Made by a program: the position numbers and the translations under genes
Origin: Aggregatibacter kilianii
GTDB lineage: Bacteria; Pseudomonadota; Gammaproteobacteria; Enterobacterales; Pasteurellaceae
Reading direction: 5' to 3'
Assembly: GCF_003129965.1 (NCBI RefSeq)
Contig: NZ_NRCJ01000006.1
Coordinates: forward strand, 1-64,000
Length of the DNA: 64,000 nucleotides
In this document: piece after piece, positions 1 through 33,626 of the stretch
Layout: each line of letters opens with the position of its first letter
Numbering within the stretch: the stretch's first letter is position 1
Notes under the pieces: generated by a model
The model's database searches: none
Told to the model about the DNA's origin: nothing
Seen by the model: only the letters and a program-made list of their open reading frames with translations

Positions 1-77
1 GAACCCACCGAGAGTAGCCCACGCAAAGCGGGGGAGCTAGTAGGAATCCCCGTCCTTTAGGGCGGGGAGGATGTCAA
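1..77 (+). mobile_element. Right end of an IS200/IS605-family element with omega-RNA-like fold
   Basis: This is the terminal part of an insertion sequence whose body lies left of the window. A hairpin with arms at 48-55 and 60-67 (CCCCGTCC / GGGCGGGG, one G-T pair, loop TTTA) is followed by GGATG and TCAA (74-77). TCAA is the right-end cleavage tetranucleotide known for IS608-type elements. A second imperfect hairpin lies at 18-24/28-34. This arrangement is characteristic of the 3' end of tnpB-carrying elements, where the same DNA encodes the TnpB guide RNA scaffold and the bases just after TCAA act as the guide. No transposase is visible here, so the exact element type is inferred. Confidence 0.7.
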
Positions 78-92
78 AAAGGTTACTAAACT

Positions 93-1619
93 ATGAAAAA
101 TAACAAACTTGTTAAATTCAGTCTAACATTAATCTGTTCAGCGGTACTAGCGGCTTGTGGTTCAAGTGGCGGTGGTGATGATTCAGCAGCTAAAGCAGCG
201 GCTGAACAACAAGCTCAACAGCAAGCAGCTCAACAACAAGCAGCTCAAGAAGCGGCTGCTAAAGCTGCTGCAGAAAAAGCAGCAGCTGACAAAGCAGCTC
301 AAACAACTACTCGCGAATCCAACCCAGGTTATTTGCTTTCTAAAAGAGAAAAATCTGATTTTATCGTAAATACAGTAAATGCAGATAAAACTGACTCTAC
401 TCAATCTAAACCGTTAGCAATGACTGTTCAAGATTTAGACCCTCGTTTAGATACTATCGTTGTAGCTTATCCACATGATGGAGCTGAGTCTAAAGCAATC
501 GCTTATGTTGAAGATTTCCAATTTGTAGGTAATACAGCTCAAAATGGTACATTCACCCTAACAGGTGTTTACGACGACTCAACAGAACGTAATACAACTA
601 ATGGTGTTTCACGTGCAGAAACCCGCACCAAAACTAATACACGAGGTACAGAAAGCGGTACTGCTTTAGTTTACGAAAAAGATCGTGTTAAATATTTTGA
701 CCGTGCAGATCTTAATAATCGTGTAGAAGGCAAGGATACATTAGCAGAAGTTTACGGCTTGAGAACTAACTCTAGAGAAGCTACAAATGGTAACTTAGAA
801 GATAACAACGCAAATAATTTACCATTAGTAAAAGAAACTAATAAATTAGCCTCTAAACAAGATGGTCAATTACGTTTTGTCCAATACGGTCGTGTAACAA
901 CTAAATTACACAACCTTACAGAGAACGATTTAAACGTATTCAAAAAAGGTTTATTGGATGATCAAAACAGTAACGTAACAAGTAATGTTATTGGTTTTGC
1001 TCACTATGGCGAAGAAGGTACCGAGAACTCTTACTTCTATCGTGGTTTAAACAATACTACCGGTGCTGAATTAGCTAAACTTTCTGGTGAGCTTGAATAT
1101 CATGGTCATGCAGTAGCTTACGGTTTAGATAATAACTACCGTGGTGTAGTTGAAGCGAAGAAAACTGATGCTCCAAATGCTATCGGTGTAGTAAAAGAAG
1201 CTGATCCTACACTTAAAAGTGGTTACCATGTTATTGCAAAAGTTAACTTAGATAACAAAAATGTTACTGGTTCTATCTATAACACTTGGAGTGATAACAA
1301 AAATACTGATTTCGACGTTAACTTAGTTAACTTCAACGGTAAATTAGATAACTACGGTAACATTGCAGGTAACTCTGAATTAGCCTATGACAGTGCAAAT
1401 AAAGCAGGCTCATTCAATGCAACTTTATTTGGTTCTCAAGCCACTGAGTTAGGTGGTAACGTTGCAGGTAATAAAAATGCTGATACTACTGTAACACAAT
1501 GGGGTGCTGTATTTGGTGCAAAAGCATACGTAACTGATCCAGTCGTAACTCAAGAACCTATCCGCAACAAACCTTGGGCGGCTCGTGCTGATGAAAATAC
1601 AGCTGGTCAAGTAAAATAA
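93..1619 (+). CDS. Slam-dependent surface lipoprotein (TbpB-like barrel)
   Basis: Predicted surface-exposed lipoprotein of 508 aa. A type II signal peptide ends in the lipobox LAAC, with Cys22 as the lipidation site, followed by a Gly/Ser linker. Residues 32-70 are almost only Ala, Gln, Lys and Glu, probably a helical tether. The rest is rich in Asn, Thr and Gly with alternating beta strands. The C-terminal third (about 330-490) has the pattern of the small barrel found in transferrin-binding-protein-B-like and other Slam substrates, including the segment WGAVFGAKAYV. The gene for its likely exporter lies directly downstream. The ligand is unknown; heme, hemoglobin or metal-protein binding would fit the family. 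The start is set by AAAAAGG about 10 bases upstream, just past the IS end, so the promoter must lie in or beyond the IS. Confidence 0.8.
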   Translation: MKNNKLVKFSLTLICSAVLAACGSSGGGDDSAAKAAAEQQAQQQAAQQQAAQEAAAKAAAEKAAADKAAQTTTRESNPGYLLSKREKSDFIVNTVNADKTDSTQSKPLAMTVQDLDPRLDTIVVAYPHDGAESKAIAYVEDFQFVGNTAQNGTFTLTGVYDDSTERNTTNGVSRAETRTKTNTRGTESGTALVYEKDRVKYFDRADLNNRVEGKDTLAEVYGLRTNSREATNGNLEDNNANNLPLVKETNKLASKQDGQLRFVQYGRVTTKLHNLTENDLNVFKKGLLDDQNSNVTSNVIGFAHYGEEGTENSYFYRGLNNTTGAELAKLSGELEYHGHAVAYGLDNNYRGVVEAKKTDAPNAIGVVKEADPTLKSGYHVIAKVNLDNKNVTGSIYNTWSDNKNTDFDVNLVNFNGKLDNYGNIAGNSELAYDSANKAGSFNATLFGSQATELGGNVAGNKNADTTVTQWGAVFGAKAYVTDPVVTQEPIRNKPWAARADENTAGQVK

Positions 1620-3338: not shown

Positions 3339-4136
3339 ATGACCAAACTCTTTAGTCCACAATTCACCACAATGCATTGATTTAGTGCTTAAACAAAATC
3401 ACACACTCTCTCAAATCAGCAAAATAATGTAGGTTAGCACATCGGCACTACAGCATTGGCGGATTCAGTATCTCAATGAACAACAAGGTTCTCCCCCTAA
3501 ACAACCTACCATTATAGCCGAGCAACGGGAAATTCAACGTCTACGGGCTGAAAATGAACAGCTGTGCAGTGATAACGTGTTGCTAAAAAAGGTCTCGCCT
3601 TCTTGATAGACAAACAATAAAACGTTTGGCTTTGAAGTTTCATTAAGAAGGCGCTTATTCTCAACAAGTCGGACGTTGTTTTGACATTCGCCGCTCAACT
3701 CTTTTCCGTTGGAAGCAAACCAAATCGAATTGGATCCTATTAAGTATTCAGGTGGAAATCACCCGTCTATTTTTGGAAAGTGGACAAGCTTACGGCTTAC
3801 GTCGATTAAGTTTGACGTTATGGCAGATAGGTTGGGAAATCGGGCGATATAATACCCGTAAACTGATGACGGAATTACAGCTAAAACCCTGTTATCCGCT
3901 GAAGTTTTACGGTAAATCGACCAAATTCTTTGGAGAATTGGTTAAATTAACAATTTGAGAATTACGTGACCAAAACTGCCGCACTACTGGGTATTACAGA
4001 ATATATTGAGGATTTTTACAATCCGAAACGGCTTCATTCAACATTGGGGAATTTATCACCGATGATGTTTGAAGCGAAACAAATGTGTTTAACACATTAC
4101 ATCTGTCACCACAACGGAATACCGTTTTTCATCTAA
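3339..4136 (+). pseudogene. Decayed IS3-family (IS150-like) transposase, orfA and orfB remnants
   Basis: Remnant of an insertion sequence. An orfA start at 3339 (MTKLFSPQF) with a good ribosome site hits a stop after 13 codons. Further on, another frame carries the leucine-zipper piece EIQRLRAENEQL (about 3530-3565). orfB pieces follow: the helix-turn-helix part with YGLRRLSLTLWQIG and RKLMTELQL (about 3752-3900), then a jump to the extreme C-terminus YNPKRLHSTLGNLSPMMFE (about 4014-4076). The catalytic DDE core between them is missing, so the element cannot move. Its stop (4134-4136) overlaps the end of ybhA on the other strand, and I see no right inverted repeat. I did not define the left end. 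Confidence 0.75.
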
Positions 4137-33485: not shown

Positions 33486-33512
33486 GCGCCATAAAAGTGC
33501 GGTCACAAAAAA

Positions 33513-33580
33513 CAACGTTTTTTGAACGTTGGCTTTGCCAACGGCCCCGCAGGGGCGAATAAATCACTCCAGTGATTTAT
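33513..33580 (+). repeat. Three abutting hairpins plus a competing stem, before rlmH
   Basis: Stem A: CGTTGGC/GCCAACG (33527-33533, 33537-33543). Stem B: GCCCC/GGGGC (33544-33548, 33552-33556). Stem C: ATAAATCACT/AGTGATTTAT (33559-33568, 33571-33580). A fourth stem, CAACGTT/AACGTTG (33513-33519, 33525-33531), uses part of stem A and so excludes it. There is no T run after it. It may be an mRNA-processing or switching element, or a dispersed REP-like repeat. Confidence 0.7.
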
Positions 33581-33626
33581 GAGTAATTTTCCAAGTGTTT
33601 TTAAAGGTGTTTTTTAGGAGCGAAAG

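What the first reader, a model, noticed from the sequence alone, without database searches (positions are those of the whole stretch)
1..110. IS200/IS605 end abuts the start of a surface lipoprotein gene, and its guide position covers the ribosome site
The element ends at TCAA (74-77), 15 bases before the ATG at 93. In tnpB elements the bases right after the right end act as the guide of the omega RNA. Here those bases are the ribosome site and start codon of the lipoprotein gene. Insertion has probably replaced the native promoter, so expression may depend on the IS, and a TnpB (or a nuclease-dead relative) could act on uninserted alleles or on this gene. The fold and TCAA are seen; guide use is inferred.
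Basis: partly seen in the sequence, partly recalled or inferred. Interest (0 to 1): 0.62.

Follow-up and report, generated by a model that had tools for sequence, protein, structure and literature searches.

The report
Jumping gene parked at lipoprotein gene start
The first 77 bases are the right end of an ordinary IS200/IS605 jumping gene (at least eight copies in this genome) that landed exactly between a surface-lipoprotein gene's own leader and its ribosome site, so the gene is cut off from its normal control region and the ribosome site sits where this element's guide RNA would read its guide.

Summary
Observation confirmed; interpretation partly right. Bases 1-77 are the right end (RE) of a multicopy IS200/IS605-type element. 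The same 77 bases sit at eight contig ends of this genome, and the matching left end at eight more, every left end preceded by TTTAT. The 77-base length is an assembly artefact: the contigs overlap by exactly 77 bases. A relative (G072) carries the empty site, ...AATTTTAT|AAAGGTTA...ATG, so the junction is exact, without target duplication, and window 78-92 (ribosome site) is native. The left neighbour is the end of contig C4.

Full-length relatives (~1.82 kb) carry divergent tnpA and tnpB with all RuvC residues (D/E/D). Their RE folds into a strongly covarying omega-RNA-like structure. The own copy's interior cannot be seen, because contigs under 3 kb are withheld. A guide starting at base 78 would match TTTAT + AAAGGTTACTAAACTATG, the uninserted allele. 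The inserted gene lacks the motif (GTCAA), so self-targeting is unlikely, and a nuclease-dead TnpB has no support.

The native promoter is displaced, not destroyed. With it goes a conserved structured leader, apparently undescribed, found in Pasteurellaceae only upstream of this lipoprotein family. The insertion is ordinary in kind; the leader is the more interesting lead.

The parts
1..77 (+). Right end of an IS200/IS605-type element (3' part of the omega-RNA scaffold); also the 77-base assembly overlap at the contig end
   Evidence: 8 identical copies at contig ends; homologous ends behind tnpB in relatives
13..38 (+). Internal stem of the right-end RNA/ssDNA (helix 5 of alignment A2)
   Evidence: 9 of 10 pairs with changes on both sides
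47..68 (+). Terminal hairpin CCCCGTCC-TTTA-GGGCGGGG, the subterminal hairpin of the right end
   Evidence: helix 6
74..77 (+). TCAA, last bases of the element
   Evidence: invariant in all 28 related ends read; junction equals the empty site of G072
78..92 (+). Native 5' untranslated bases with ribosome site AAAGG (78-82)
   Evidence: aligned to the uninserted locus of G072
78..97 (+). Position of the omega-RNA guide (16-20 nt) if a TnpB uses this copy; covers ribosome site and start codon
   Evidence: inferred from position, as described for ISDra2 (PMC8612924); no RNA data here
93..1619 (+). Surface lipoprotein gene (lipobox LAAC, TbpB_B_D C-terminal barrel), intact, 508 aa
1707..3185 (+). 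Slam (surface lipoprotein assembly modulator) gene, 492 aa
   Evidence: Pfam SlipAM 1.1e-80, TPR_Slam 3.1e-27

Best explanation
An IS200/IS605-type element inserted by single-strand peel-and-paste immediately 3' of a TTTAT in the 5' untranslated region of a lipoprotein-slam operon. It kept the native ribosome site and start codon but moved the native promoter and a conserved structured leader away by the length of the element (about 1.8 kb if full length). Expression now depends on transcripts crossing or starting inside the element (inferred). If a copy makes TnpB, the transcript across this right end would yield an omega RNA whose guide is AAAGGTTACTAAACTATG.... Its target would be the uninserted allele (TTTAT + guide), which TnpB would cut so that repair copies the element back. 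The inserted allele is protected because TTTAT is no longer next to the match. Shown: element end, exact junction, empty site, target TTTAT in 8/8 copies, covarying right-end structure, intact tnpB in relatives. Inferred: tnpB in this genome, guide use, effect on expression.
For: Eight right ends and eight left ends in the genome; all eight left junctions read TTTAT|CCAACGTG, chance about 6e-21 from the window's TTTAT frequency. Empty site in G072 continues exactly from the C4 end to window 78. Relatives carry divergent tnpA-like and tnpB ORFs of 381 aa with PF01385, PF07282 and NCBIfam guided_TnpB for TnpB and invariant D181/E265/D361 (ISDra2 TnpB structure 8bf8 matched at 5e-49). Covarying right-end RNA. 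Full-length relatives are 1818-1832 bases including TTTAT; a withheld contig C26 is 1822 bases. No terminator-like site in the element end on the + strand and no promoter-like site between it and the gene.
Against: The interior of the own element is not readable, so its tnpA and tnpB may be mutated or absent; no match to TnpB was found in the readable contigs, which is uninformative because contigs under 3 kb are masked. No expression or RNA data. The G072 empty site differs from the guide after 8 bases (a 2-base gap), so that relative's allele is not a perfect target. No conspecific strain without the insertion was available.
Confidence: 0.88

Rival explanations
1. The copy is a non-autonomous or tnpB-less derivative: only the ends are intact, so there is no local TnpB and the guide is silent unless another copy acts in trans.
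For: Such derivatives exist in relatives: a lone right end without tnpB (L043/L015), an element with a broken tnpA region and intact tnpB (L038), one with an incomplete interior (L044). The own interior is unread.
Against: Contig C26 (1822 bases, withheld) has the length expected of a full-length collapsed copy.
Confidence: 0.25
2. A nuclease-dead TnpB (TldR-like repressor) uses the guide over the ribosome site to silence the lipoprotein gene.
For: Guide position covers ribosome site and start codon; TldRs repress genes for surface structures in other bacteria (PMC13418256).
Against: All 15 related TnpBs keep the three catalytic residues; the inserted allele lacks the TTTAT motif; the element is still a multicopy transposon with both ends.
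Confidence: 0.02
3. The 77 bases are native leader sequence of the lipoprotein gene.
For: Only their position next to the start codon.
Against: Eight dispersed identical copies; absent from the orthologous locus in G072.
Confidence: 0.01

Closest known systems
ISDra2 (Deinococcus radiodurans), IS200/IS605 family with tnpA and tnpB
   Same: Hairpin ends, insertion 3' of a fixed pentanucleotide without duplication, right end followed by the guide, TnpB of about 380-410 aa alignable over its length
   Different: Target TTTAT instead of TTGAT; own TnpB and TnpA not read; no activity data
Slam/surface-lipoprotein pairs such as PmSLP-Slam of Pasteurella multocida
   Same: Lipoprotein with lipobox and TbpB-like barrel directly upstream of a slam gene
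   Different: Direct homology to PmSLP was not tested; here the pair is separated from its leader by an IS
TldR (nuclease-dead TnpB repressors)
   Same: Guide position next to a surface-protein gene
   Different: Catalytic residues intact in the related TnpBs; still a transposon; no motif at the inserted site

Membership tests
IS200/IS605 insertion sequences | Insertion 3' of a short fixed target, no target duplication | tested here: met
   TTTAT at 8/8 left junctions; empty site aligned base for base
IS200/IS605 insertion sequences | Subterminal hairpins at both ends | tested here: met
   Left CTCCGTCC-TTCA-GGGCGGAG and right CCCCGTCC-TTTA-GGGCGGGG
IS200/IS605 insertion sequences | Y1 (HUH) TnpA | not testable with these tools
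   Divergent tnpA-like ORFs in relatives, named from their sequence and not scanned against a family library; own interior withheld
TnpB-omega RNA (OMEGA) system | TnpB with RuvC D/E/D | tested here: inconclusive
   Met in 15 relatives; own copy not readable
TnpB-omega RNA (OMEGA) system | Structured RNA ending at the right end | tested here: met
   38 pairs, 21 with changes on both sides, in 25 sequences
TnpB-omega RNA (OMEGA) system | Guide taken from the bases after the right end and used for cleavage | not testable with these tools
   Needs RNA and activity data
TldR repressors | Inactivated RuvC | tested here: not met
   Intact in all 15 related proteins; own copy unread
Slam-dependent surface lipoproteins | Lipobox, TbpB-like barrel, adjacent slam gene | tested here: met
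   LAAC in the signal region, PF01298 6e-14, PF04575 1.1e-80 for the neighbour

The most novel reading that the evidence does not exclude
The insertion acts as a reversible switch of surface-lipoprotein expression: footprint-free excision by TnpA would rejoin the gene to its promoter and conserved leader, while TnpB, guided by the ribosome-site sequence, cuts the restored allele and restores the separated state, so that an RNA-guided nuclease holds a surface antigen's control state.
Probability: 0.07. Interest if true: 0.75.

Novelty: new member of a known kind. Interest (0 to 1): 0.38.

Why it matters
It is a clean, testable case in which the guide of a TnpB element would be the ribosome site and start codon of a surface-antigen gene, so element retention and antigen control share one sequence. 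The comparison also exposed a conserved structured leader restricted, as far as searched, to this Slam-associated lipoprotein family, a candidate new cis-regulatory element that the insertion has split from its gene.

Tried and rejected
Own-genome searches for TnpB by family and protein were empty but uninformative, since contigs under 3 kb read N. The first genome-contig scan with the lipoprotein found nothing; the slam scan gave named Pasteurellaceae relatives but at most 54% identity. Solved structures: no match for the lipoprotein. Rfam has no match at the right end (gathering threshold) and none at the native leader (its hits there are sub-threshold microRNA families on palindromic DNA). 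RNAalifold on the whole leader alignment recovers only the first hairpin because the aligner cannot align the second one, so that one was counted by hand-set arms. Ribosome-site sequestration in the native leader was considered and dropped as a claim: the predicted stems are weak, and the site's predicted pairing is similar before and after insertion. Being next to a gene start is not special to this copy: 9 of 36 right ends have a same-strand ORF of 100 aa or more starting within 60 bases, one of them with its ribosome site directly at the element end (L024).

Full report
What is there. Window position 1 is the first base of contig C36 of a 39-contig genome. Its first 77 bases occur eight times at 100% identity, each time as the outermost 77 bases of a contig. 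Grouping all readable contig ends by their outer 77 bases gives the same picture for other repeats (groups of 8, 8, 6 and 5, plus several pairs), so the assembly breaks at repeats with a 77-base overlap. The number 77 is therefore an artefact, but the break point is informative: it is where the eight copies stop being identical, that is, the end of the element.

The element. Among 140 genomes of the family, 26 carry this right end. Intact relatives have a tnpB of about 381 aa upstream of it and a divergent tnpA-like ORF, with total length 1818-1832 bases including the target. Their left end, used as a query, finds eight left ends in the own genome, again at contig ends. All eight read TTTAT|CCAACGTGCCG. 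Left and right ends each form a GC-rich hairpin as single-stranded DNA. The TnpBs match PF01385, PF07282 and NCBIfam guided_TnpB and ISDra2 TnpB structures; D181, E265 and D361 are invariant in 15 proteins. Aligning 25 right ends over 150 bases gives a six-helix structure with 21 of 38 pairs changed on both sides, 97.5% of cells paired, and no shuffle as good. This is what is expected of the omega RNA described for ISDra2, which ends at the right end and continues about 16 nt into flanking DNA (PMC8612924), and which TnpB can process from its own mRNA (PMC10278001).

The junction. The closest relative of the lipoprotein gene (G072, 79% identity over most of the protein) lacks the element. Its sequence matches contig C4 up to and including TTTAT and then the window from base 78, with no base lost or duplicated at the junction. 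So C4 end is the left neighbour, the ribosome site AAAGG (78-82) is native, and the element sits between the untranslated leader and the ribosome site.

What it most likely does. Shown: the gene and its slam partner are intact and separated from their native upstream region. Inferred: transcription of the operon now has to cross the element or come from it. No terminator-like site lies in the element end on the coding strand, and no promoter-like site lies between it and the gene. If TnpB is made, the guide begins at base 78 and its perfect target is TTTAT+AAAGGTTACTAAACTATG, the uninserted allele. In this genome the only near match is the inserted site itself, preceded by GTCAA. The model proposed for ISDra2, cutting the restored donor joint so that repair copies the element back (PMC8612924), needs nothing more.

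Limits. The interior of the own element is not visible: contigs under 3 kb are held as N. Contig C26 has 1822 bases, as expected for the collapsed element, but this is circumstantial. Only one genome per species is held, so no conspecific empty site could be tested.

The leader left behind. Reading the native upstream region of homologs showed a shared element: a hairpin GAAAGGC...GCCTTTT, overlapping a perfect palindrome CCTTTTGTATACAAAAGG (the two folds are mutually exclusive), then a second hairpin whose sequence differs between species while its pairing is kept. That second hairpin has 96 of 100 pairs standard in 10 sequences from 9 genomes and 3-5 pair types per position; random re-pairing of arms gave a mean of 51 and never 96 in 10,000 trials (arms delimited by hand). 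The palindrome with at most one mismatch occurs in 10 of 140 family genomes, always upstream of this lipoprotein family, and in none of the other genomes of 369 drawn from the class (that draw includes the own genome and one relative). A covariance model adds one decayed copy before what looks like a lipoprotein remnant in G066. Rfam has no such family. By eye, a -10-like hexamer lies just upstream in most species, so the element is probably the 5' end of the mRNA; whether it acts as RNA (attenuator or stabilising leader) or as a DNA operator is open. In the own genome it is intact at the end of contig C4 (79020-79058) but now separated from its gene.

Verdict. The insertion is a new member of a known kind; regulatory consequences are plausible but untested.

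Noticed in passing
contig C4:79020-79058 (L212; end of L093) and upstream of homologs in L190, L191, L193-L199, L204: Conserved structured leader GAAAGGC..GCCTTTTGTATACAAAAGGGG plus a covarying second hairpin, found only upstream of this Slam-associated lipoprotein family; no Rfam match. Candidate new cis-regulatory RNA or operator.
   Followed up: partly
L060 and L064, upstream of the lipoprotein homologs of G132 and G022: Long poly-G tracts between -35-like and -10-like hexamers, as in phase-variable promoters, in place of the conserved leader.
   Followed up: no
L195 (G117), leader region: The palindromic leader is duplicated in inverted arrangement, two CTTTTGTATACAAAAGGG copies 48 bases apart.
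   Followed up: no
L043/L015 (G008:C2): A lone right end of about 145 bases without tnpB or left end nearby: an orphan omega-RNA-like remnant.
   Followed up: partly
L004 and L008 (own contigs C11 and C1): Other copies of the same element end inside a second lipoprotein-like gene and inside a YadA-like adhesin gene (named by eye from the sequence).
   Followed up: no
window 33497-33594: Full-length match to Rfam AaHKsRNA22 (Aggregatibacter sRNA 22), 100.9 bits, suggesting Aggregatibacter or a close relative.
   Followed up: no
window 3752-3958: Short ORF resembling an IS3-type transposase fragment downstream of slam (judged by eye).
   Followed up: no
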